In this document: piece after piece, positions 25,810 to 37,468 of the stretch
How positions within the stretch are numbered: the first letter of the stretch is position 1
Layout of the letters: every line of letters starts with the position of its first letter
Position numbers and translations under genes: made by a program
Notes under the pieces: model-generated
The model's input: the letters and a program-made list of their open reading frames with translations, nothing else
Told to the model about the DNA's origin: nothing
Database searches by the model: none
From: Saccharothrix sp. NRRL B-16348
Lineage (GTDB): Bacteria > Actinomycetota > Actinomycetes > Mycobacteriales > Pseudonocardiaceae
NCBI RefSeq assembly: GCF_001280085.1
Contig: NZ_LGED01000231.1
Span: 82,452-146,451 of the forward strand
DNA: 64,000 nucleotides
Direction: 5' to 3'

Positions 25810-26475
25810 ATGTCGAAGTCGGGCGCACCACTGAGCCGGGAACGCGTCCTGCGCGCCGCCGTCGCCATCGCCGACGCGGGCGGGATCGCGGGGTTGACCA
25901 TGCGGTCGCTCGCCGACGCGCTCGGGGTCAAGCCGATGTCCGTCTACCACCACGTCGCGAACAAGGACGAGATCCTCGACGGCATCGTGGACCTGGTCTT
26001 CAGCCGGATCGCACTGCCGACGCCCGGCGCCGACTGGCGGCCCGAGATGGTGAAGCGGGCGAACTCCGCGCGGGACGTGCTCCGGCGCCACCCGTGGGCG
26101 CTCGGCCTGCTGGAGTCGAGGACGGCGCCCGGCCCGGCGACGCTGCGCCACCACGACGCGACCATCGGCACGTTGCGCCGCGCGGGCTTCTCCGTCGCGA
26201 TGACCGCCCACGCCTACGCCCTGCTGGACAGCTACGTGTACGGGTTCGCGCTCCAAGAGGCCGCGCTCCCGTTCAACAGCCCCGAGTCCGCCGCCGCGGT
26301 GACCGAGGACATCCTGGAGCACCTGTCGAAGGACGACTACCCGCACCTCGTGGAGCTGGCGACCGAGCACGTCCTGCGACCGGGCAACGACTTCGCCGGC
26401 GAGTTCGCGTTCGGGCTCGACGTGATCCTCGACGCCCTGGCGGCCTGGTTGCCCGACGTCAGTCCAGGTTCGTGA
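25810..26475 (+). CDS. TetR-family regulator
   Basis: 221 residues. The N-terminal HTH (about 8-55; GLTMRSLADALGVKPMSVYHHVANKDEIL broken at its turns) is followed by a TetR_C-type ligand domain (LLDSYVYGFALQEAALPF). RBS GGAGGTCGG precedes the ATG. It diverges from the DUF4386 membrane protein and most likely represses it and itself through the inverted repeats between them. The ligand is unknown. The 3' end overlaps the convergent DUF4230 gene by 17 nt. Confidence 0.92.
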   Translation: MSKSGAPLSRERVLRAAVAIADAGGIAGLTMRSLADALGVKPMSVYHHVANKDEILDGIVDLVFSRIALPTPGADWRPEMVKRANSARDVLRRHPWALGLLESRTAPGPATLRHHDATIGTLRRAGFSVAMTAHAYALLDSYVYGFALQEAALPFNSPESAAAVTEDILEHLSKDDYPHLVELATEHVLRPGNDFAGEFAFGLDVILDALAAWLPDVSPGS

Positions 26476-27082
26476 ACTCGACCTCGTACCCGAGCGCGCC
26501 GAACATGCCGGTCAGCATCTTGCGCGTGTTGTCGTCGGCCCGCCGCACCAGCCCCGACTCGCGCGCCGCGTCCGCGATCTTCCGCTCCGCCGCCACGTAG
26601 AACGGCTGCTGGTCCTGCGTCTCCACCAGCGACGCCAGCCGGTCGAACAGCCCGCGCTCCTGCGCGAACACGTAACACCGCTCCTGGTCCAGGTTCGGCT
26701 TGTCCAGCACCGCGCCGGGCAGCGCGAGCCGCACCTTCCGCGCCTCGCCGGACGCGGTCGTCGGCGCCACCCGCAACGCGTCCTCGGCCAACCCGCCGAA
26801 GTCGACGTAGGCGTTCACCGTCCCGGCCGCCACGAACAGCGTCCGCTGCCCGGCCAACGCCGACGGCACGTACCGGACGTCGCGCTCGATGTCGAGCACC
26901 ACCTGGAACTCGCCCGCCGAAGCGTGGTACTGGCTCAAGTCCCGCAACGACTGGAGCAACGCCGGCTGGCTGCGGTCGATCGTGTCCGTGCCCGTCAGGA
27001 ACCGGGGCACCACCAACACCGCCGCCACGAGCACCCCGACCGCCACCAGCACCGCCGCCGCCACACCGATGCGCCACTTCAT
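26459..27082 (-). CDS. DUF4230 protein, membrane anchored
   Basis: 207 residues. One N-terminal transmembrane segment (about 5-28; AAAVLVAVGVLVAAVLVVP) leads to an extracytoplasmic DUF4230 domain (SLRDLSQYHASAGEFQVV, VRYVPSALAGQRTLFVAAGTV broken by loops, and AYVDFGGL). The family is widespread in actinobacteria and its function is unknown. It lies 22 nt upstream of nothing co-directional except the SDR that precedes it, whose promoter is further upstream. Confidence 0.85.
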   Translation of the reverse strand: MKWRIGVAAAVLVAVGVLVAAVLVVPRFLTGTDTIDRSQPALLQSLRDLSQYHASAGEFQVVLDIERDVRYVPSALAGQRTLFVAAGTVNAYVDFGGLAEDALRVAPTTASGEARKVRLALPGAVLDKPNLDQERCYVFAQERGLFDRLASLVETQDQQPFYVAAERKIADAARESGLVRRADDNTRKMLTGMFGALGYEVEFTNLD

Positions 27083-27104
27083 GCCGGCGGGATACCCAGG
27101 CGCA

Positions 27105-27785
27105 CTACCAGGGAACCCGCTTCCCGTCGCGGAAGAACCCGCCCGTCGGCCCGTCGTCGGGCAACGTCGCCGCCCACACCACGCTCGCCGCGCCCTGCGC
27201 CACCGGCCGCCCGCCCGCGCCGCCCATGTCCGTGGCGACCCAGCCGGGGCACACCGCGTTGACCTTCATGCCGGGCAGTTCGGCCGCCAACATCAAGGTC
27301 AGCGCGTTCAACGCCGCCTTCGACGTGCCGTAAGCGGGCGTGCCGCCGCCCATCGACGCCAACGACGCGGCCTCGCTCGACACGTTCACCACGCGTGCCC
27401 GCCGTGCCGCCCGCAGCAGCGGCAGCAGGCCGAGCACCATCCGCCACGGCCCGTAGAAGTTGGTCTCCATGGCCTCCCGGACGACCCCCAGGTCGGCCGA
27501 CGACGCCCGCTGCCAAGTGTCGTAGTGGATGGCCGCGTTGTTCACCAGCACGTCCAGCCGCCCGTGCCGCGCGGTCAGGTGCTCCACCAGCGCGGCCACC
27601 GACGCGTCGTCGGTCACGTCCAGCCGGTGGTGGTCGACGCCCAGCCGTTCGGCCGCCGCCCTGGCCTTGTCCGCGTCACGCGCGGTCAGCACCACGACGT
27701 GGCCGAGCGCGGCCAGCTGACGGCACACCTCCAGCCCGATGCCCCGGTTCCCACCCGTCACGACCGCCACCGGCGCGTCCGCCAT
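27105..27785 (-). CDS. SDR oxidoreductase divergent from the ACP/KS cluster
   Basis: 226 residues of classical SDR resembling plant-type carbonyl reductases: TGGNRGIG (about 9-16), LVNNAAI, and the catalytic YGTSK; NAVCPGWVATDMGG follows. ATG 27785 (MADAPVAV) is chosen. It is separated by 110 nt from the divergent ACP gene, so a shared regulatory region is possible and it could act as the ketoreductase of the ACP-KS-KSIII-DH-DH set. That link is inference; the overall sequence is more carbonyl-reductase-like than FabG-like. Confidence 0.87.
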   Translation of the reverse strand: MADAPVAVVTGGNRGIGLEVCRQLAALGHVVVLTARDADKARAAAERLGVDHHRLDVTDDASVAALVEHLTARHGRLDVLVNNAAIHYDTWQRASSADLGVVREAMETNFYGPWRMVLGLLPLLRAARRARVVNVSSEAASLASMGGGTPAYGTSKAALNALTLMLAAELPGMKVNAVCPGWVATDMGGAGGRPVAQGAASVVWAATLPDDGPTGGFFRDGKRVPW

Positions 27786-27895: not shown

Positions 27896-28129
27896 GTGTA
27901 CGAGACGCTGAAGAACATCCTCGTCGACACGTTGAAGGTCGCGCCGGAGCAGGTCACCCCGGAGGCGACCAAGGACGACCTCGACCTGGACTCGCTCGCG
28001 TTCGTCGAGCTGTCGATGGTGCTCGGCAAGGAGCACGGCCTGCACATCAGCGACGACGAGCTGTTCGACATGGAGACCGTCGGCGACATCGTGGCGCTGA
28101 TGGAGGAGCGCGCCGGTGAGCGGTCTTGA
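27896..28129 (+). CDS. Acyl carrier protein
   Basis: 77 residues, GTG start with RBS GAGGAGAG. Helical ACP fold with the phosphopantetheine attachment Ser in LDLDSLAFVEL (S33), and C-terminal FDMETVGDIVALM. It is the first gene of a five-gene run with overlapping or near-overlapping coding regions; the KS gene starts 14 nt before its stop. It carries the growing acyl chain for the associated KS, KSIII and dehydratases. Confidence 0.93.
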   Translation: MYETLKNILVDTLKVAPEQVTPEATKDDLDLDSLAFVELSMVLGKEHGLHISDDELFDMETVGDIVALMEERAGERS

Positions 28130-29327
28130 CATCGCGGTGACCGGGCTCGGCCTGGTCACGCCGGGCGGTGTGGGCGTGGCGGCGGGCTGGGCGGCGGTGC
28201 TCGCGGGCCGGTCGACCGCCGCGCACGACCCGGTGCTCGCGAGCCACGAGGTGACGATCTCCTGCCGCGTGCCCGACTTCGACGCCGACGCGCTGCTCGG
28301 CGCGCGGCGGGCCGTCCGGCTCGACCGGTTCACCAGGTTGGCGCTGGTCGCGGCACGGGAGGCGGTCGCCGGGGAAGACGTCGACGCCTGGGACGCGGCA
28401 CGGGTCGGCGTGGTGATCGGCACGTCCGCGGGCGGCGGTGAGACGTTCGAACGGCAGCACGGCGTGCTGCTCGCCGACGGCCCGACCGGGGTGTCGCCAC
28501 TGGTGCTGCCGATGCACCTGCCGAACATGGTCGCCGGCCAGGTCGCGATCGAGTTCGGCTTCCGCGGGCCGAACCTGGTCGTGTCGACCGCGTGCGCGTC
28601 CGGCGCGACCGCGATCGGCGTCGCGTGCGACCTGCTCGCCGCGCGGCGGTGCGACGTGGTGCTCGCGGGCGGGGTCGACGCGCTGCTCAACCCGTTGACC
28701 ATGGCGGGTTTCGCCCGGATGGGAGCGCTGTCGCGGCGGGACGACCCGGCGACGGCGTCGCGGCCGTTCGACGTCGACCGGGACGGGTTCGTGGCGGGCG
28801 AGGGCGCGGCGGTGCTGGTGCTGCGGCGCGCGGAGGACGCGCGGGCCGACGGGCGGCGGGTCCGGGCGCGGGTCGTCGGGTACGGCGCGACCGCCGACGC
28901 GCACCACATCACCAACCCCGACCCCGAGGGGCGGGGCGTGATCGCGGCGGCGAAGGCGGCGTTGGCGGACGCGGGCGCGTCGGCTTCCGACGTCGGGCAC
29001 GTCAACGCGCACGGCACGTCCACGCAGCTCAACGACCTGGTGGAGGGCCGGGTGCTGGCGGAGCTGCTGCCGTCGGGGCCGCTGGTGACGTCGACCAAGG
29101 GCGTGACCGGGCACATGCTGGGCGCGGCCGGCGCGGCGGAGGCGGTGTTCACCGTGCTGGCGGTCGAGCAGGGCCTCGTGCCGCCGACGGCGAACCTCGC
29201 GACCCTCGACCCCCGGCTGGACCTCGACGTGGCGACCACCGCCGTGCCGCGGGAGGTGGACCTGGCGTTGAGCAACTCGTTCGGGTTCGGCGGGCAGAAC
29301 GCGGTGCTGGCCATCGCGAAGGCGTGA
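28116..29327 (+). CDS. Beta-ketoacyl-ACP synthase (FabF-like KS)
   Basis: 403 residues with the elongating KS triad: C160 (VSTACASG), H299 (NAHGTST) and H333 (KGVTGHMLGAAG). GTG 28116 overlaps the ACP gene by 14 nt. There is no chain-length-factor partner, so it resembles FabF or a highly reducing type II PKS KS working alone. It performs decarboxylative condensation of malonyl-ACP with the primed chain. No acyltransferase is encoded here, so malonyl loading presumably uses the FAS malonyl transferase. Confidence 0.94.
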   Translation: MSGLDIAVTGLGLVTPGGVGVAAGWAAVLAGRSTAAHDPVLASHEVTISCRVPDFDADALLGARRAVRLDRFTRLALVAAREAVAGEDVDAWDAARVGVVIGTSAGGGETFERQHGVLLADGPTGVSPLVLPMHLPNMVAGQVAIEFGFRGPNLVVSTACASGATAIGVACDLLAARRCDVVLAGGVDALLNPLTMAGFARMGALSRRDDPATASRPFDVDRDGFVAGEGAAVLVLRRAEDARADGRRVRARVVGYGATADAHHITNPDPEGRGVIAAAKAALADAGASASDVGHVNAHGTSTQLNDLVEGRVLAELLPSGPLVTSTKGVTGHMLGAAGAAEAVFTVLAVEQGLVPPTANLATLDPRLDLDVATTAVPREVDLALSNSFGFGGQNAVLAIAKA

Positions 29328-29340
29328 GCGGGGAGGGACG

Positions 29341-30312
29341 ATGACCTACCGCGGCGCGGTGATCCTCGGGGTCGGCGCGAGCCTGCCGGCACGGGTCGTC
29401 ACCAACGACGACCTGGCCACCCGCCTGGACACCTCGGACGAGTGGATCCGGTCGCGCACCGGCATCGGCGCCCGGAGGTGGGCGGAGCCGGGCACGTCCA
29501 CGTCGGACCTGGCCGTCGACGCGGGCGCGCGGGCACTGCGCTCCGCCGGTGCGTCCACTGTGGACGCGGTGATCGTCGCCACCACCACGCCGGACCGGTC
29601 GTGCCCGGCCATCGCGCCGGACGTGGCGGCCCGGCTCGGCATGGTCGGCGTGCCCGCGCACGACGTGGCCGCCGTGTGCACCGGCTTCCTGTACGGCCTG
29701 GCGAACGCGGTCGGCCTGATCGCGAGCGGCGCGGCGCGGACCGTGCTGCTGATCGCCGCCGAGACGTTCTCCACCATCCTCGACCCGGACGACCGCGGCA
29801 CGGCGGTGATCTTCGGCGACGGCGCGGGCGCGGTCGTCGTCGGAGAGGGGGAGCCCATGATCGGTCCGTGCGTGCTCGGCAGCGACGGCACCGGCGCCGA
29901 CCTCATCCAGGTGCCGGCGGGGGAGCGCTACTTCCGGATGAGCGGCAAGGAGGTGTTCCGGCACGCGGTCGAGCGCATGTCGGACGTCGCGCTGGACGCG
30001 CTGGCCCGCACCGGCCTCGGCCCGGACGACGTCGACCACCTCGCGCCGCACCAGGCGAACCGGCGCATCTGCGACGCCGTCGCGCGCCGCCTCGGCCTCG
30101 ACGGGTCGAAGGTGCTGGCGGACCTCGACGAGGTCGGCAACACGGCCGCCGCCTCGATCCCCGTGCTGCTGGCCGACGCCGCCGCGGCCGGTCGGCTCAA
30201 GGCGGGCGACCGGGTGCTCACCGTGGCCTTCGGCGGCGGCCTGACCTGGGGCGCGGCCACGCTGGTGTGGCCGGACGTGACAGCGGACTTCGGCGTGCTG
30301 GGTGATCGGTGA
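29341..30312 (+). CDS. KAS III (FabH-like) ketoacyl synthase
   Basis: 323 residues with the FabH catalytic triad C113 (AVCTGF), H237 (PHQANR) and N267 (EVGNTAA). RBS GGGGAGGG precedes the ATG. It would prime the pathway by condensing a starter acyl-CoA with malonyl-ACP. Its stop overlaps the start of the first dehydratase by 4 nt. A dedicated KSIII next to a lone KS and two hotdog proteins indicates a pathway separate from housekeeping fatty acid synthesis. Confidence 0.94.
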   Translation: MTYRGAVILGVGASLPARVVTNDDLATRLDTSDEWIRSRTGIGARRWAEPGTSTSDLAVDAGARALRSAGASTVDAVIVATTTPDRSCPAIAPDVAARLGMVGVPAHDVAAVCTGFLYGLANAVGLIASGAARTVLLIAAETFSTILDPDDRGTAVIFGDGAGAVVVGEGEPMIGPCVLGSDGTGADLIQVPAGERYFRMSGKEVFRHAVERMSDVALDALARTGLGPDDVDHLAPHQANRRICDAVARRLGLDGSKVLADLDEVGNTAAASIPVLLADAAAAGRLKAGDRVLTVAFGGGLTWGAATLVWPDVTADFGVLGDR

Positions 30313-30656
30313 GCGGCTACCTCGCGTCGCCGGTGGAGGTGCTGGAGCAGTCCGATACGACCGCCGTCGCGCGGATGGTCGTCGCGGCGGACGACCCGGT
30401 GTTCGCGGGCCACTTCCCGGACTTCCCGATCTTCCCCGGCGTGGCCGTCGTGGAGTTCGCGCACCGTGCCGCGACCGCGACGGGCGGGTTGCGGCTGGCC
30501 GCGATCGAGTCGACCCGGTTCGTGCGGCCGACGTTGCCCGGCACGACGTTGACCGTCCACGTGACCTGGGACGACGCGGGGCGGCGGTGTGCCGCGGCGG
30601 TGAGCGACGCCGACGGCGTGGTCGCCCGGGTCAAGCTGCGGTACGAGCCGTGCTGA
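30309..30656 (+). CDS. 3-hydroxyacyl-ACP dehydratase, FabZ-like, catalytic residues intact
   Basis: 115-residue hotdog protein, GTG start in the GTGA overlap. The FabZ active-site His is H35 (AGHFPDFPIFPG) and the Glu is E49, 14 residues later as in FabZ. It is short for FabZ, lacking the usual N-terminal extension. It overlaps the second hotdog gene by 7 nt. It should dehydrate 3-hydroxyacyl-ACP, possibly as a heterodimer with its neighbour. Confidence 0.88.
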   Translation: MSGYLASPVEVLEQSDTTAVARMVVAADDPVFAGHFPDFPIFPGVAVVEFAHRAATATGGLRLAAIESTRFVRPTLPGTTLTVHVTWDDAGRRCAAAVSDADGVVARVKLRYEPC

Positions 30657-31081
30657 CCTCCGCCGACATCCTCCGACGGCTGCCGCACCGCTACCCGGTG
30701 CTGCTGGTCGACCGGGTGGCGGAGGTCGTGCCGGGCGAGTCGCTGACCGCGCTCAAGGCGGTCAGCGCCAACGAACCGTGGCACACCGCCGGCGACTTCC
30801 CGTCGACGTTGCTGCTGGAGTCGTGGTGCCAGGCCGCCGTGCTGCTGTCGTCGTGGGACCACCCGCTGCCCACCGGCCGGGTGGTGCTGATCGGCTCGCT
30901 GACGGACGTCGAGTTCCACCGGCCGGTCACACCGGGCTGCGTGGTCCGGCACTCGGTGCGGATCCTCTCCACCCGCGGCGACACGGTGGCGTTCACCGGC
31001 GAGTCGACCGTCGACGACCAGGCCGTGATGACCGTCGGCCGCGCCGTCACCACCACCCGTGCCGCCGCCGACCTCGGCTGA
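30650..31081 (+). CDS. FabZ-like hotdog protein lacking the catalytic His
   Basis: 143 residues, GTG start. The opening LPHRYPVLLVDRV and NEPWHTAGDFP are FabZ-like, but the catalytic HFP is D49-F-P, and the following loop is about six residues shorter (E57 at +8 instead of +14). It is therefore probably inactive alone. Paired with the intact H35/E49 protein encoded just upstream, it resembles heterodimeric dehydratases such as mycobacterial HadAB, where one subunit supplies catalysis and the other substrate binding (inference). Last gene of the cluster. Confidence 0.83.
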   Translation: MLTSADILRRLPHRYPVLLVDRVAEVVPGESLTALKAVSANEPWHTAGDFPSTLLLESWCQAAVLLSSWDHPLPTGRVVLIGSLTDVEFHRPVTPGCVVRHSVRILSTRGDTVAFTGESTVDDQAVMTVGRAVTTTRAAADLG

Positions 31082-31349
31082 CGAAGTGCGTTGACCGGCT
31101 GCGCCGCTTCGACCGGCATTCGGCGGCACCGCGCCGGCGAGCCGGTAGTCCAGCGGCAGGACCCGTCGGTGTTCCGCACTAATGCGGTCCGTTCGCGCGG
31201 GGCGCCGCGCCTCTGGATTATCTGCGACAGGCTGCGGTATCGTGCCCGCCCGGCAGAGTTCGCCGCTCGGTCTGCTGTGGTCACCGGTCGTCAAGGGCAA
31301 TGGGCAGTTTCGAACAAGATGAGTCCTGATCACGTGAAGGTGGGTGGTA

Positions 31350-32120
31350 ATGGCGCCGACTCCTTCTCCGGAGCCTCCTCGCAGACTTGTCAACTGGTCT
31401 GCGGCAACAGCACTGCTGACCGCTGTCGCGGCGGTCATCGCGGCGGTCTTCACCTGGGTCTCGGTCCAGGCCATCCAGAAGCAAGTCGATATCGCGCAGG
31501 CGCAGAACAGGATCGCCGAGCAGGGGCAGTTCACCGATCGGTACACCAAATCCGTCGAGCAGCTCGACCAGATGGGCGGAGACCACCTGCAGGTCCGCCT
31601 GGGCGGGATCTACGGCCTGGAACGCCTGGCCCACGACTCGCCCCGCGACCAGCCGACGATCGTCGAAGTGCTCTCCGCGTTCGTGCGGACCACCACCCCC
31701 GTGCCGAGCGCCGTCGACCCGTATTCCCCGATCACGTGCCCGTACGAGTCGGTCAAGCCTGACATCCAGGCCGCGATCCGGGTCATGGGTCGTCGAAACG
31801 CGAATCACGACAACGGCACGCGCATCGATCTGCGCCGTACCTGCCTGCGGACCGCGGAATTCGTCGACGCGCAGCTCGCCAAGGCGATTTTCGAACGCGT
31901 CGACCTGAGTTCGAGCAACTTCACCGGAGCCAACCTCGTCAAGGCCTACCTCTTCGGCGCGGATCTGACCACGGCCAATCTCGAAGGGGCCGACCTGCGG
32001 GGTGCGGATCTCAGCGGCGCGGACCTGAGCGGGGCGAACCTGGCCAAAGCCCTCCACGACGAGCACACCAAAGTGGAAGGCGTGAAAACGGACGGGCAAA
32101 CGACCGGAAAATGGTGGTGA
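31350..32120 (+). CDS. Pentapeptide-repeat protein with N-terminal membrane helix
   Basis: 256 residues. One transmembrane segment (about 18-40; LLTAVAAVIAAVFTWVSV), a helical stalk with Gln-rich sequence, a region with LGGIYGLERLAHDSPRDQP typical of actinobacterial membrane pentapeptide proteins, then pentapeptide repeats (about 168-233; FTGANLVKAYLFGADLTTAN and on) forming a right-handed beta helix. ATG 31350 is chosen, GTG 31344 being an alternative. Function unknown. A 268-nt gap upstream has no recognisable gene. Confidence 0.85.
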   Translation: MAPTPSPEPPRRLVNWSAATALLTAVAAVIAAVFTWVSVQAIQKQVDIAQAQNRIAEQGQFTDRYTKSVEQLDQMGGDHLQVRLGGIYGLERLAHDSPRDQPTIVEVLSAFVRTTTPVPSAVDPYSPITCPYESVKPDIQAAIRVMGRRNANHDNGTRIDLRRTCLRTAEFVDAQLAKAIFERVDLSSSNFTGANLVKAYLFGADLTTANLEGADLRGADLSGADLSGANLAKALHDEHTKVEGVKTDGQTTGKWW

Positions 32121-32210: not shown

Positions 32211-32900
32211 GTGGGTGCGATGCGGTTCGTGCACGGTGGGTTCGGGCGGGACGCGGTGCCGTACGAGCAGGCGTACGCCGAGCAACGGCGGCTGCACGCG
32301 TTGCGCGTCGCGGACGAGATCGGCGACGTCTGCGTGCTCCAGGAGCACCTGCCCGTCTACACGGCGGGCAAGCGCACCAAGGCCACCGCGTTCCCGACCG
32401 ACGACGTCCCGGTGCTGACCGTGGACCGTGGCGGCGAGATCACCTGGCACGGTCCCGGTCAGCTCGTCGGCTACCCCGTGGTGAAGCTGCCCGTGCCGCT
32501 CGACTCCGTCGGCCACGTCCGCAGGCTGGAGGACGCGCTGATCGGCACGTGCGCCGAGTTCGGCGTGGCGACGGCCCGGCTCGCCGGGCGCAGCGGCGTG
32601 TGGGTCCTCGGCGCCGACGAGCCCGCGCCGGACGTGCCGCCGTCGGCCGCCCGCGCGCACGGGCAGCACCGCAAGATCGCCGCGATCGGCGTGCGCATCG
32701 AGCGGTGCACCAGCCTGCACGGGTTCGGCCTCAACTGCGACCCCGACCTGACCCCGTTCGACCGGATCGTGCCGTGCGGCATCGAGGACGCCGGCGTCAC
32801 CTCGCTGTCCGCCGAACTCGGCCGTCGGGTCGCGCCGGCCGAGGTGGTGCCGGTGGTCGAACGTCACCTGACGAGGGTGTTCGCGGCCGATCGCCGGTGA
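32211..32900 (+). CDS. lipB: Octanoyl-ACP:protein N-octanoyltransferase LipB
   Basis: 229 residues. LipB motifs are complete: GGEITWHGPGQLVGYPVV (about 66-83), RKIAAIGVRI with the catalytic Lys, and LHGFGLNCDPDLTPFDRIVPCGI with the catalytic Cys. It transfers octanoyl from ACP to lipoyl domains. No lipA is adjacent, unlike the usual lipB-lipA order, so this may be a second or relocated copy. It has its own leaderless promoter and is 2 kb from a KS cluster that contains an ACP; any link is speculative. Confidence 0.93.
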   Translation: MGAMRFVHGGFGRDAVPYEQAYAEQRRLHALRVADEIGDVCVLQEHLPVYTAGKRTKATAFPTDDVPVLTVDRGGEITWHGPGQLVGYPVVKLPVPLDSVGHVRRLEDALIGTCAEFGVATARLAGRSGVWVLGADEPAPDVPPSAARAHGQHRKIAAIGVRIERCTSLHGFGLNCDPDLTPFDRIVPCGIEDAGVTSLSAELGRRVAPAEVVPVVERHLTRVFAADRR

Positions 32901-32915
32901 CGGCCGACTGCTCGG

Positions 32916-33122
32916 TCACTTGTCCACCCACAGCGTGTTGTTGTCGTCGCACTTCCAGTCGTCCCACTGGCCGCTGAACACCCCGGCCGCGCCGGCGGTC
33001 TGGCAGAGGTAGGCGTTGTTGAAGTCGCCCTGCTTGCGCCACGCGCGCTCGGACGGCGCGGTGGTGTGCAGCGCGGCGACGAGCGCCGCGGCGGTGGCGG
33101 TCATGGCGGTCAGTCGGTGCAT
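32916..33122 (-). CDS. Small secreted protein, 68 aa
   Basis: Signal peptide of about 25 residues (MHRLTAMTATAAALVAALHTT), then a mature peptide of about 43 residues rich in Trp, Asp and Asn with two Cys (YLCQTAG and DWKCDDNN) that could form a disulphide. It has no recognisable family. RBS GAGGAGC precedes the ATG. It lies just downstream of the terpene synthase gene on the same strand. Confidence 0.65.
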   Translation of the reverse strand: MHRLTAMTATAAALVAALHTTAPSERAWRKQGDFNNAYLCQTAGAAGVFSGQWDDWKCDDNNTLWVDK

Positions 33123-33148
33123 GGTCGCTCCTCAGGTGAACGGGTGGA

Positions 33149-34195
33149 TCACAGGTCGTCCCACCACCACGAGATGGCGGGGATCGGAAGGGGCTCCGTG
33201 CTCGGGTCGGACGGCCGCTCGGCCCAGCCCGGGTGAGGCGCGATGCCGTCGTAGCGGGGCACGTTGAGCGCCCAGTCGATGTTGCCGCGGATGGCGTGGC
33301 CGAGGCCGTCGAGGTAGGTCCGCAGCGCCTCGCTGACCGGCCGGGCCGTGACGATCTCGCGCAGCCGCAGGAAGCGCGTCATGACGCGGTCGCGCAGCCG
33401 CACCGCCTCCGCCGCCGCCTCGTCGCGCCGCAGGCCGCGGTGGTGGGCCAGCACGGTGACCAGGTTCGGGTAGTCGCGGCTCTCGCGCAGCTCGCGGTGC
33501 AGCGAGTGGAAGTCGTTGTCCCACGAGGCGACCGTGATCGCCATCTCGGTCAGCGCCCGCACCGCCGGCGAGTCCATCTCCGCGCCGGGCACCTCCGGGC
33601 CGTTGGCGATCTCCAGCAGCGCGATGGTCGGCGAGCCGCCCGCCGTCTGCAGGCGCAGGGCCGTGTACTCGGGCAGGTCCGGCAGGTGACCGCGGGCGCG
33701 GTTCGCGACCTGCCACGTCACCGAGAACAGCCACGCGCGGTGGGCGTCGGTGAAGCGCCGCGCCTGCGTCGGTGTGCGCAGCTCGTACATGCCGCGCACG
33801 ATGTCCTGCACGGACCGCGCGTACCGGTCGTCACCCGGGTCGCACCACGGCGCGTCCATCACGCGCTGCACCGCGCCCGCCATCGGCGGGAACCGCGCGG
33901 GGTCGTCGCCGAACCGGCCGGTGTCGCAGCGCCGGTCGTCGAAGATGAAACCCCAGTACACCCAGCGCACGGCGAGCTGGAGGCCGTCGTAGTCGGCGAA
34001 GGGCGCGAACCGGGCGTAGAACTCGGCGCTCAACGTGTGGCGCAGCGACTCGCGCTGCCGGTCGTCCGCCGCCAGGCCGACGCGCTCGACCCAGGCCAGC
34101 GCGTCGCGTTCCGACTCGGCGACGCGGGGGTGGATGGCGGCGTCGACCGGGCAGTAGAACGGGTGCAGGTCGATGGGCGCGTCGACGGTGGTCAC
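33149..34195 (-). CDS. Class I terpene synthase
   Basis: 348 residues. The aspartate-rich motif is FIFDDRRCD (D86, D87, D91) and the NSE/DTE motif is N227-D-F-H-S231-L-H-R-E235; an RY pair near 312 (NVPRYDG) completes the bacterial terpene cyclase set. GTG 34195 is chosen because it overlaps the DXS stop as GTGA; GTG 34204 is the alternative. It is coupled to a DXS gene and faces a prenyl diphosphate synthase plus ABC exporter. The chain length (C15 or C20) depends on that synthase. Confidence 0.93.
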
Positions 34196-35958
34196 GCCGT
34201 CCACCCCGGCAGGAAGCGGGCCACCGTGCGGGCGATGCCGGCGGCGTCCAGGTCGTGCATGCGGAGGATGTCGGCACGCGAGCCGTGCGGCAGGAAGTCG
34301 TGGGGCAGGCCGAGGACGCGGATCCGGCGGCTCAGCCCGGCCTCGCGCAGCGCCGCGGCGACGGCCTCACCGATCCCGCCAGCGCGTACGCCGTCCTCCA
34401 CGCACACCACGACCCGGTGCTCGGCGGCCAACGCCACCACCGCCGGGTCGACCGGGGTCACCCAGCGCGGGTCGCACACGGTCACGCCGATGCCCTCGCC
34501 GGCGAGCGCCACGGCGGCGGCCACCCCGTCGGCCGCGAGCCCGCCGACGGTCACCAGCAGCACGTCCCGCCGGGACGACCGGTGCAGCACGTCCACCCCG
34601 CCGAGCCGGTCGACCGCGGCGACGTCCGCGCCGATCGCGCCCTTGGGGAAGCGGACCGCGGTCGGCCCGTCGTCGGCGACCGCCTCGTCCAGCAGGTCCC
34701 GCAACCGCGTGCCGTCGCGTGGCGCGGCCACCCGCATCCCGGGCACGACGCGCAGCAGCGCCAGGTCCCACGCGCCGTGGTGGCTGGGACCGTCCTCGCC
34801 GGTCACCCCGGCCCGGTCGAGCACGAACGTCACCGGCAGCCGGTGCAGCGCCACGTCCATCAGCACCTGGTCCGCCGCACGGGTCAGGAACGTCGAGTAC
34901 ACCGCCACCAACGGCCGCAGCCCGCCCATGGCCAGGCCCGCCGCGCACGTGACGGTGTGCTGCTCGGCGATCCCGGTGTCGAGCACCCGATCGGGGAACG
35001 CCTCGGCGAACGCGGTCAACCCGGTCGGGTGCAGCATGGCCGCGGTCAGGCACACCAGGTCCGGGTGCCGGTCGGCGAGCACCAGCAGGTGCTGCCCGAA
35101 CACCGACGTCCACCCCGGACCGCGGGCGGCCGACGGCGCGGACACGGCGTGCAGGTGGTCCACCGGATCGTTCTCCGCCGGAGGGTGACCCTTGCCCTTC
35201 TCGGTCACGCAGTGCACGACCACCGGACGTCGCAACACCTTCGCGGCGGTCAGCGCCTCCTCCACCCGGACGACGTCGTGCCCGTCGACCGGGCCGAGGT
35301 AGGCCAGCCCGAACTCGGCGAACACGCCTCCGCCACCGCCCGCGCGCAGGGCGGCGAGGTGCCTGCCCACCGCGCCCGCGGTCGGCGCGTACGACCGCCC
35401 GTTGTCGTTGAGGACCACCACCACCGGGTGGTCGACGCCGCCGAGGTTGTTCAACGCCTCCCACGCCATGCCGCCGGTGAGCGCGCCGTCGCCGACGACC
35501 GCCACCACGTGCCGGTCGTGCTCGCCGCGCAGCCGCGCCGCGCGCGCCAGACCGTCCGCATAGGACAGTGCGGTGGACGCGTGCGAGTTCTCCACCAGGT
35601 CGTGCGGCGACTCCGCCCGGCTGGGGTAGCCGGACAGGCCGCCCTCGCGGCGCAGGTCGGCGAACCCGTCGGCCCGACCGGTGAGCATCTTGTGCACGTA
35701 GGACTGGTGCCCGGTGTCGAACACGATCCGGTCGTGCGGCGACCGGAACACCCGGTGCAGTGCCAGGGTCAGCTCGACCACCCCGAGGTTCGGCCCCAGG
35801 TGGCCACCCGTGCGGCCCACCGTCTCGACCAGGCGTGTCCTGAGCTCGCGCGCCAACCCGTCCAGCGCGTCGCGCGGCAGGCCGGGCAGGTCGGCCGGAC
35901 CGGCGATCGGTCGCGCCGGCGCCCGGACGGTCCTGGGCAGGGTGGTGGTGTCGGTCAT
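34192..35958 (-). CDS. dxs: 1-deoxy-D-xylulose-5-phosphate synthase
   Basis: 588 residues of thiamine-diphosphate enzyme. The ThDP motif is [17 protein letters not shown]; other conserved blocks are [19 protein letters not shown] with the catalytic Glu, and [15 protein letters not shown] 35958 has GGAGTGG upstream. It makes DXP from pyruvate and G3P, the first MEP-pathway step. A DXS encoded immediately before a terpene synthase and overlapping it by 4 nt looks like a dedicated, precursor-boosting copy rather than the housekeeping one. Confidence 0.95.
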
Positions 35959-36385
35959 CAGGCCACTCCGTGTGGTGCGAAAGCCCTTGCGGCAACGTGG
36001 GATGAGGCGAACGTGCCGCACTCGGACCGGCCGGTACAAGCGCGCCGACGCGTTTCACGCGAACGAGATCGCAGGTGCCACACGGACGAGTGCGTGTCGT
36101 TCCCGGAAATCGGGGAAGCGGCGTTCCCCAGCGTCGTCGGGAACGCGTCACCCCACGTCAAAGGGCGGATGTGCGGGCGAGAAGCGCAGGTGGGACCGGT
36201 CCGTCCGCCCCCGAACGGGGTCGCCGGCCCTCGTGGGCCGCCGGTGCCGCCCCACCGGTGTTAGCTTCGGAGCGCCCGGGAAGTGACCACGTCCGACCGC
36301 CGGAACGTGACCGTGTGCACCCACCGCGCTCCCCGCTCCCCGCGTCCTCGCCGGAACCGGTCTTGTTCGCGCCTGTGGAGGTTCC
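35959..36385. other. Divergent control region between dxs and prenyl synthase
   Basis: 427 nt with no convincing gene. It holds a nested inverted repeat: outer arms CGTTCCCG (36098-36105) and CGGGAACG (36138-36145), inner arms GGGGAA (36112-36117) and TTCCCC (36124-36129). RBS GTGGAGG lies before ATG 36386. Promoters for both halves of the terpenoid cluster must be here, but no clear -35/-10 pair was fixed. Confidence 0.5.
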
Positions 36386-37468
36386 ATGACTGTCATCGAC
36401 GCCGTGCGCGGCGACCTCGCCGAGGTCCGCGCGCAGGTGGACGCGACGCTCGACCGCTTCCTGGTGGAGAAGGCGCGCACCGCGCCCGACCCGTGCCTGC
36501 CGCCGCTGGTGGAGGTGCTGCGGGAGTTCGTGGCCGGCGGCAAGCGGCTGCGCCCCATGTTCTGCCACTGCGGTTTCCTCGCCGCGGGCGGCTCGCCCGA
36601 CGACCGCGCGGTGACCTGGACCGGCGCGGCGTTGGAGATGTTCCACACCTTCGCGCTGGTGCACGACGACATCATGGACCGCTCCGCGCTGCGCCGCGGC
36701 CGCCCGACCGTGCACCGGGTGCTCGCCGAGCGGTTCCTCGGCGACCACCACGACGACGGGACGTCGGCCGAGCGGTTCGGCGTGAGCCTCGCCATCCTGG
36801 CGGGTGACCTGTGCTTCACGTGGACTGACGAGATGCTGGACCGGGCCGGCGTGGACCACGCGCGGTGGCGCGAGGTGCGGGCGCTGCTGCACACCATGCG
36901 CACCGAGCTGATCGCCGGGCAGTACCTGGACCTGGGCGGCGACCCGCGGTCCACGGCGGACCCGGTGCGGTCGGCGTGGCGGATCATCCGGCTCAAGACC
37001 GCCCGGTACACGGTCGAGTTGCCGCTGCGCATCGGCGCGGCGCTGGCCGGCGGCGACGCGGCGGTCATGCGGGCGTGCGGCGCGTACGGGCGGCCGGTCG
37101 GTGAGGCGTACCAGCTCCGCGACGACCTGCTCGGGGTGTTCGGCGACCCCAAGGTGACCGGCAAGCCGGACCTGGACGACCTGCGCGCCGGCAAGCCGAC
37201 CGTGCTGATGGCGCTGGCCCGGCAGCAGGCCACCCCCGAGCAGCGCGCGGTGATCTCGGCCCTGCACGGCGATCCGGAGCTGGACGAGGAACAAGCCGAG
37301 CGGCTGCGCGACGTGGTGGTCTCGACCGGCGCCGCGGCGCGGGTGGAGCGGCTGATCACGATCCGCGCCGACCGGGCGCTGGGCGCGTTGCGCTCGTCGT
37401 CCATGGACCGGGCCGCCAAGGCGCCGCTGGCCGAGCTGGTCGCCCACGCGACCCGCCGCGCCCGGTGA
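36386..37468 (+). CDS. Polyprenyl diphosphate synthase (GGPP/FPP type)
   Basis: 360 residues. First aspartate-rich motif DDIMD (D94-D98) and second DDLLGVFGD (from D246), as in trans-isoprenyl diphosphate synthases. Residues just before the first motif (ALEMFHTFALVHDD) include aromatic positions that set product length, so C15 and C20 products are both possible. It starts the rightward half of the terpenoid cluster; its stop overlaps the ABC gene by GTGA. Confidence 0.93.
   Translation: MTVIDAVRGDLAEVRAQVDATLDRFLVEKARTAPDPCLPPLVEVLREFVAGGKRLRPMFCHCGFLAAGGSPDDRAVTWTGAALEMFHTFALVHDDIMDRSALRRGRPTVHRVLAERFLGDHHDDGTSAERFGVSLAILAGDLCFTWTDEMLDRAGVDHARWREVRALLHTMRTELIAGQYLDLGGDPRSTADPVRSAWRIIRLKTARYTVELPLRIGAALAGGDAAVMRACGAYGRPVGEAYQLRDDLLGVFGDPKVTGKPDLDDLRAGKPTVLMALARQQATPEQRAVISALHGDPELDEEQAERLRDVVVSTGAAARVERLITIRADRALGALRSSSMDRAAKAPLAELVAHATRRAR

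What the first reader, a model, noticed from the sequence alone, without database searches (positions are those of the whole stretch)
27896..31081. Orphan ACP-KS-KSIII-DH-DH cluster with no acyltransferase, CLF or thioesterase
Five overlapping or nearly overlapping genes encode ACP, a lone FabF-like KS, a FabH-like KSIII and two hotdog dehydratases, with a ketoreductase-like SDR on the opposite strand 110 nt away. The set could make a reduced or polyene acyl chain from a KSIII-chosen starter, borrowing malonyl loading from fatty acid synthesis. It matches no standard aromatic type II PKS, and I cannot place it in a named pathway.
Basis: partly seen in the sequence, partly recalled or inferred. 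Interest (0 to 1): 0.75.

Follow-up and report, generated by a model that had tools for sequence, protein, structure and literature searches.

The report
Acyl-chain operon ending in LipB paralogue
Some soil bacteria of the genus Saccharothrix carry a small gene set that looks able to build a short fatty chain on its own carrier protein, and it ends in a spare copy of the enzyme that normally attaches an eight-carbon chain to proteins on the way to the cofactor lipoate, so the chain may be made to be handed to that enzyme.

Summary
The unit is one gene longer than described: it ends in a second LipB (octanoyltransferase), 32220-32900. This paralogue is in 7 of 25 genus genomes, all 7 among the 9 that carry the cassette, and in 0 of the 16 without it. 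In four loci it starts 1-10 bp after DH2. An empty site bounds the cassette at about 27.78-33.15 kb. The SDR next door and the terpene genes belong to the surrounding locus, not to the cassette.

The KS groups with KSs of aliphatic azoxy clusters, away from housekeeping FabF, polyene type II KSs and CLFs. The two hotdog proteins match the DH pair of cinnamoyl/polyene type II PKS clusters; DH1 keeps the catalytic His, DH2 has lost it and keeps the Glu, so they are probably one heterodimeric enzyme. Housekeeping FAS, LipB and LipA lie elsewhere.

Best reading: a self-contained acyl-ACP line whose acyl group is taken over by its own LipB-type transferase. Chain length and acceptor are not shown, and no extra LipA or lipoyl-domain gene goes with it. 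Known enzyme kinds in a combination I found no report of: a new variant of a known kind.

The parts
27896..28129 (+). acyl carrier protein (D-S-L serine motif in the sequence)
   Evidence: PF00550 7.9e-13; 87-94% identical in the eight other genus loci
28116..29327 (+). FabF-like ketosynthase; Cys160, His299, Lys328 and His333 invariant in a 14-sequence alignment
   Evidence: tree places it with azoxy-cluster KSs
29341..30312 (+). KSIII (FabH-like); Cys, His and Asn motifs VCTGF, HQAN and GNTAA visible in the sequence
   Evidence: PF08541/PF08545; NCBIfam fabH over cut-off
30309..30656 (+). DH1, short hotdog subunit keeping the GHFP histidine and the Glu
   Evidence: His and Glu in 17 of 17 aligned DH1
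30650..31081 (+). DH2, FabZ-like hotdog subunit without the GHFP histidine, Glu kept
   Evidence: motif absent and Glu kept in 18 of 18 aligned DH2; Glu57 invariant in 20
32220..32900 (+). LipB2, paralogue of lipoyl(octanoyl) transferase; Lys152 and Cys186 kept
   Evidence: PF21948 8.4e-36; NCBIfam LipB over cut-off; 195 bits to solved lipoyltransferase 1w66; 7 of 9 cassette genomes, 0 of 16 others; tree
31344..32120 (+). pentapeptide-repeat gene between DH2 and LipB2 (my caller starts it at 31572); an inserted neighbour, not a cassette gene
   Evidence: PF00805 2.1e-19; not between DH2 and LipB2 in L129-L132
32916..33122 (-). 68-aa ORF inside the segment missing at the empty site; role unknown, perhaps belonging to the neighbouring terpene locus
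   Evidence: a relative in L134
27777..33145 (.). extent of the cassette by comparison with an empty site
   Evidence: L227 (G020) aligns to window 26472-27776 and again from 33146, with about 115 nt between
27105..27785 (-). SDR; locus neighbour, NOT a cassette gene on the evidence
   Evidence: present in 5 of 16 cassette-less loci; intact in 3, in pieces in 2 and absent in 4 of 9 cassette loci

Best explanation
The window holds a self-contained acyl-ACP production and transfer cassette: ACP, KS, KSIII, DH1/DH2 and a LipB paralogue. Proposed working: KSIII primes, the single KS elongates on the dedicated ACP, a ketoreductase and, if needed, an enoyl reductase and FabD are borrowed from fatty acid synthesis, DH1/DH2 dehydrates as a heterodimer with one active site, and LipB2 takes the medium-chain acyl group (octanoyl if it keeps the family's specificity) from the ACP onto its cysteine and passes it to an amine, probably a protein lysine. 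Shown: gene content, conservation, cassette borders, linkage of LipB2 to the cassette, kept catalytic residues. Inferred: every reaction, chain length, DH heterodimer, LipB2 as the receiving enzyme, and the acceptor.
For: LipB2 in 7 of 25 genus genomes, all among the 9 with the cassette; LipB2 starts 1, 1, 2 and 10 bp after DH2 in L130, L131, L129 and L132, and 37 bp after KSIII in L135 where the DHs are gone; empty site L227; LipB2 monophyletic at 100/100 with Lys and Cys in 15 of 15; median dN/dS of LipB2 0.31, KS 0.21, KSIII 0.25; second LipB1 beside a two-lipoyl-domain E2 and LipA on contig C218, so LipB2 is not the housekeeping copy; His/Glu split of DH1/DH2 as in the ApeI/ApeP heterodimer with a single active site (passage of PMC8041823).
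Against: No dedicated acceptor is visible: one LipA in each of 25 genomes and Biotin_lipoyl matches 9-11 with and 9-13 without the cassette. LipB2 is missing from G006 and only remnants are left in G005, and G006 and G015 lack the DHs, so the set is not indivisible. In the window and in L128 another gene separates DH2 from LipB2. G014's second cassette copy (L136) has no LipB within the 20 kb read. The residue I recall as FabF Ile108, the bottom of the acyl pocket, is Ala in this KS (alignment), so nothing seen limits the chain to C8.
Confidence: 0.5

Rival explanations
1. A starter or acyl-chain module of a secondary metabolite whose other genes lie elsewhere in the genome; LipB2 is a passenger with a role of its own in lipoate assembly.
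For: The closest KS relatives outside the genus lie in biosynthetic clusters; KSIII-ACP-KS sets occur in several cluster types; two cassette genomes have lost LipB2.
Against: No LipB2 in any of 16 genomes without the cassette; LipB2 abuts DH2; no tailoring genes inside the cassette; no VlmB match in the own genome (which had no positive control).
Confidence: 0.3
2. Decaying left-over of an azoxy or polyene cluster without a present function.
For: DHs absent in 2 of 9 and LipB2 absent or remnant in 2 of 9 cassette genomes; DH1 and DH2 evolve faster (median dN/dS 0.38 and 0.59).
Against: Open frames with kept active-site residues; low dN/dS for KS, KSIII and LipB2; same place in 9 species.
Confidence: 0.1
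3. A polyene or reduced acyl chain made with the adjacent SDR as ketoreductase, possibly joined to the terpene genes dxs, polyprenyl synthase and terpene synthase next door.
For: Closeness; DH pair related to polyene-type DHs.
Against: SDR, terpene synthase, dxs and polyprenyl synthase occur together without the cassette in L227, and SDR or polyprenyl synthase without it in further loci; no CLF; KS outside the polyene KS group.
Confidence: 0.07
4. A second general fatty acid synthase for membrane lipids.
For: FabF/FabH-like KS and KSIII over NCBIfam subfamily cut-offs.
Against: Present in only 9 of 25 genus genomes; a separate housekeeping KSIII-ACP-KS set exists (L196).
Confidence: 0.03

Closest known systems
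KSIII-ACP-KS set of aliphatic azoxy clusters (VlmA/VlmB type)
   Same: Nearest KS relatives outside the genus: 71-75% in L186-L188; KSIII 55-60% and ACP about 57-64% in L007-L009, L087, L193 and L194. The azodyrecin paper reports KSIII-like genes near some VlmA groups (passage of PMC9379638).
   Different: No azoxy genes in the cassette and no VlmB match in the own genome; DH pair and LipB2 added; gene order ACP-KS-KSIII.
DH pair of highly reducing / cinnamoyl type II PKS clusters
   Same: DH1-DH2 neighbours at about 45-59% identity, same His/Glu split; the own genome also has such a cluster (L197).
   Different: There the pair goes with KS, CLF, KR and a DsbA-like protein; here with a lone KS and KSIII.
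ApeI/ApeP dehydratase heterodimer of aryl polyene clusters
   Same: Two-subunit hotdog DH with one active site (passage of PMC8041823); DH1 over the Pfam ApeI-like cut-off.
   Different: No other aryl polyene genes; ApeI is fused to ApeH in the strain of that paper.
LipB octanoyltransferase
   Same: Family score, Lys and Cys kept, 195 bits to 1w66.
   Different: Separate clade on a long branch, 9 internal sites fixed or nearly fixed (at least 14 of 15) for another residue than in 26 comparison LipBs at positions 19-122 and two at 164 and 166, plus a C-terminal extension; genes of an acyl-ACP line beside it.
Mitochondrial type II FAS supplying octanoyl-ACP for lipoate (recalled)
   Same: Idea of a separate small FAS feeding lipoylation.
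   Different: Not tested; no lipoate role is shown here.

Membership tests
Highly reducing (polyene) type II PKS | KS-CLF heterodimer (as described in PMC10698177, passage) | tested here: not met
   One KS and no CLF in the cassette; KS outside the polyene KS group at 100/100 and far from CLFs
Highly reducing (polyene) type II PKS | Dedicated KR in the cluster | tested here: not met
   Only the SDR is near, and it does not follow the cassette
Highly reducing (polyene) type II PKS | DH pair of this type | tested here: met
   About 45-59% identity and same residue split
Aliphatic azoxy cluster | VlmA/VlmB-type N-N forming genes | tested here: not met
   None among the genes around the cassette; VlmB query empty in the own genome (no positive control in that call)
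Housekeeping FAS II FabF | KS inside the FabF group | tested here: not met
   Grouped at 100/99 with azoxy/triad KSs apart from the own FabF; own FabF is on a long branch, so exact order is unsure; NCBIfam fabF 427 bits, cut-off 493.75
LipB octanoyltransferase | Family score and Lys/Cys dyad | tested here: met
LipB octanoyltransferase | Octanoyl transfer from ACP to lipoyl domains | not testable with these tools
   needs enzyme assay
Cispentacin/coronafacic acid type II PKS-like set | AmcB, AmcE, AmcF and AmcG homologues over cut-off | tested here: not met
   ACP 36 of 80, DH2 59 of 140, KS 224 of 325 bits; AmcG only 21.5 of 80 with the KS
Aryl polyene cluster | KS-CLF (ApeO-ApeC) and other ape genes | tested here: not met
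   No CLF in the cassette; other ape genes not searched one by one

The most novel reading that the evidence does not exclude
A bacterial counterpart of a dedicated lipoate-type acyl supply: a mini fatty acid synthase assembled from an azoxy-type KSIII/ACP/KS set and a polyene-type DH heterodimer that makes one acyl-ACP for its own LipB paralogue, which acylates protein lysines (lipoyl domains or new targets), or serves as an amide-forming off-loading enzyme of a natural product.
Probability: 0.35. Interest if true: 0.75.

Novelty: new variant of a known kind. Interest (0 to 1): 0.5.

Why it matters
If LipB2 really draws on the cassette ACP, this would be an acyl line hard-wired to a LipB-family transferase, either a separate supply for lipoate assembly or a new way of releasing an acyl chain as an amide. 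Both are directly testable with six small proteins. It also shows a mix-and-match origin: KS set of one cluster type, DH pair of another, transferase from primary metabolism.

Tried and rejected
SDR as part of the cluster: rejected by the presence pattern. Terpene hybrid: rejected because TPS, dxs and polyprenyl synthase stand without the cassette in L227. Azoxy product: no azoxy genes near, VlmB query empty. Cispentacin-like set: below cut-offs. Housekeeping FAS. A dedicated lipoylated protein or second LipA: looked for, not found. Chain length from the KS pocket: the recalled FabF Ile108 position is Ala, which settles nothing. Chain length from elaiomycin (side chain recalled as C8): the papers seen did not give it, and azodyrecins carry longer chains, so this is not used as evidence. 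Paper searches returned nothing; 32, 35, 36, 55, 56, 73 and 74 were seen as listings. Polarity of the empty site is open: G016 (L225) looks like a deletion, since a dxs remnant is left there, so G020 could be pre-gain or post-loss.
Full report
Observation. The reported genes are present at the reported place: ACP 27896-28129, KS 28116-29327, KSIII 29341-30312, DH1 30309-30656, DH2 30650-31081, with an SDR on the other strand at 27105-27785, 110 nt away. Gene borders are from my own codon-usage caller. The host is Saccharothrix-like: the nearest named KS is 95% identical, from Saccharothrix sp. 6-C; the genome G000 has 10.9 Mb in 278 contigs.

Conservation. In 25 genomes of the genus, 9 have the KS at E <= 1e-130; G014 has a second copy at 82%. 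I fetched 20-kb stretches for these and for the same place in the 16 others, found through the conserved pseudouridine synthase that all 25 carry. All 9 cassettes lie beside this gene and DUF4230. ACP, KS and KSIII are in 9 of 9, DH1 and DH2 in 7 of 9 (absent in G006 and G015), LipB2 in 7 of 9 (absent in G006; only two pieces covering 14% in G005).

The unit includes LipB2. A search of the 25 genomes with the window's LipB gave a housekeeping copy of about 54-58% identity in 25 of 25 and the close paralogue (83-100%) in 7, all among the 9 cassette genomes; none of the 16 others has it (G023 has one further partial match of 43%). By hand the chance of 7 falling within 9 of 25 is 36/480700, about 7e-5, but the species are related and share one locus, so this overstates the weight. 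In L129, L130, L131 and L132 LipB2 starts 2, 1, 1 and 10 bp after DH2; in the window a pentapeptide-repeat gene and in L128 an opposite-strand gene stand between; in L135, without DHs, it starts 37 bp after KSIII. In the protein search 15 sequences at 78-100% (the window's own included) stand before a drop to 60% (best 120 of 7999 listed); those with a name are Saccharothrix or Actinosynnema.

Borders. L227 (G020) has SDR, 124 nt, terpene synthase, dxs, polyprenyl synthase and no cassette; its alignment to the window breaks at 27776 and resumes at 33146. L225 (G016) resumes inside dxs and so looks like a deletion. The SDR is intact in 3, in pieces in 2 and absent in 4 of 9 cassette loci, and present in 5 of 16 without cassette. 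SDR and terpene genes are therefore locus neighbours.

KS. A 58-row tree puts the 10 cassette KSs in one clade (100/99), sister to three KSs of same-family azoxy-type clusters L186-L188 (100/95), inside a group (100/99) with seven more azoxy-labelled KSs and L010. Of the 11 loci that I labelled azoxy, 10 have a VlmB-like match and L189 does not (L087 is the source of that query, annotated VlmB-like, and carries a PF09924 protein, the VlmA model named in PMC9379638). The polyene KSs, the CLFs and the FabFs of other phyla are elsewhere in the tree. The own FabF and three other own KSs are on long branches and several rows have unusual composition, so the deep order is unsure. None of the 9 cassette-like KS loci outside the genus examined (L186-L194) and none of 9 Streptomyces/Kitasatospora loci there shows DH1, DH2 or LipB2. 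In 394 genomes of the class only the own and two others passed E <= 1e-150, and in 297 of the family 16 passed 1e-140.

DH pair. DH2 relatives occur in 60 of 297 family genomes at E <= 1e-12. I read the surroundings of 11 of these loci outside the cassettes (L137-L147). The KR-like and DsbA-like families stand beside the pair in 10 of 11 (L143 gave no gene calls) and the CLF-like one in 9 of 11 (L147 is cut by its contig). This is the gene set of cinnamoyl/polyene type II PKSs (passages of PMC6510318 and PMC10698177). DH1 has the GH(F/Y/L)P His and the following Glu in 17 of 17; DH2 lacks that motif and keeps the Glu in 18 of 18; the window's and L129's DH2 have an unaligned His in the shortened loop. 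That His and Glu are the FabZ catalytic pair is recalled. PMC8041823 describes ApeI/ApeP as heterodimeric dehydratases with a single active site (passage). Hence DH1/DH2 are most simply one enzyme.

LipB2. It scores over the NCBIfam LipB cut-offs and matches solved lipoyltransferase 1w66 at 195 bits. In a 42-row tree LipB2 (15) and Saccharothrix LipB1 (12) are each one clade at 100/100, LipB2 on the side of Streptomyces LipBs; bootstrap had not settled. Lys152 and Cys186 are kept in 15 of 15; their catalytic role is recalled. The housekeeping copy lies on C218 with a two-lipoyl-domain E2 and LipA.

Function. The anatomy fits: starter by KSIII, extension by the lone KS on the dedicated ACP, dehydration by DH1/DH2, reductions and malonyl loading borrowed, acyl transfer by LipB2. 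PMC10332631 (passages) states that LipB moves an ACP-bound octanoyl residue to target lysines. Against a simple lipoate role: LipA is single in 25 of 25, and Biotin_lipoyl matches are 9-11 in cassette genomes (mean 10.3) and 9-13 in the others (mean 10.4). The DHs and LipB2 can be lost while ACP-KS-KSIII stay, so the oldest function of the set may not need them. dN/dS medians: PsU 0.16, KS 0.21, KSIII 0.25, DUF4230 0.29, LipB2 0.31, DH1 0.38, DH2 0.59, ACP 0.59, with one ACP pair at 1.2.

Verdict. Known enzyme kinds, a new combination. Searches for print: lipoyl, LipB, gene cluster, acyl carrier protein, natural product; 8 papers with at least 5 of 6 terms, 6 listed, none by title about such an operon; Saccharothrix, lipoyl, octanoyltransferase, ketosynthase; none with 3 of 4. 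The library lacks most subscription journals, so this is weak evidence of absence.

Noticed in passing
L197 (G000:C113:100000-119900): The same genome has a separate cinnamoyl/polyene-type set with KS, CLF, DH1, DH2, KR and DsbA-like matches.
   Followed up: partly
window 33149-37468: Terpene synthase, dxs and polyprenyl synthase beside the cassette, standing without it in L227.
   Followed up: partly
L136 (G014:C1:883000-902900): Second, divergent ACP-KS-KSIII-DH1-DH2 copy at another place, without LipB in 20 kb, with a tandem-hotdog thioesterase-like gene upstream on the same strand.
   Followed up: partly
window 31344-32120: Pentapeptide-repeat gene between DH2 and LipB2, absent from that spot in L129-L132.
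   Followed up: no
L129 and L132: The SDR next to the cassette matches in several pieces, so it may be broken there.
   Followed up: no
window 32916-33122: 68-aa ORF with a signal-like start; a relative lies at the same place in L134.
   Followed up: no
L148 (Streptomyces plasmid NZ_CP108847): KSIII-ACP-KS set near a very large type I PKS and an acyl-CoA carboxylase subunit.
   Followed up: no
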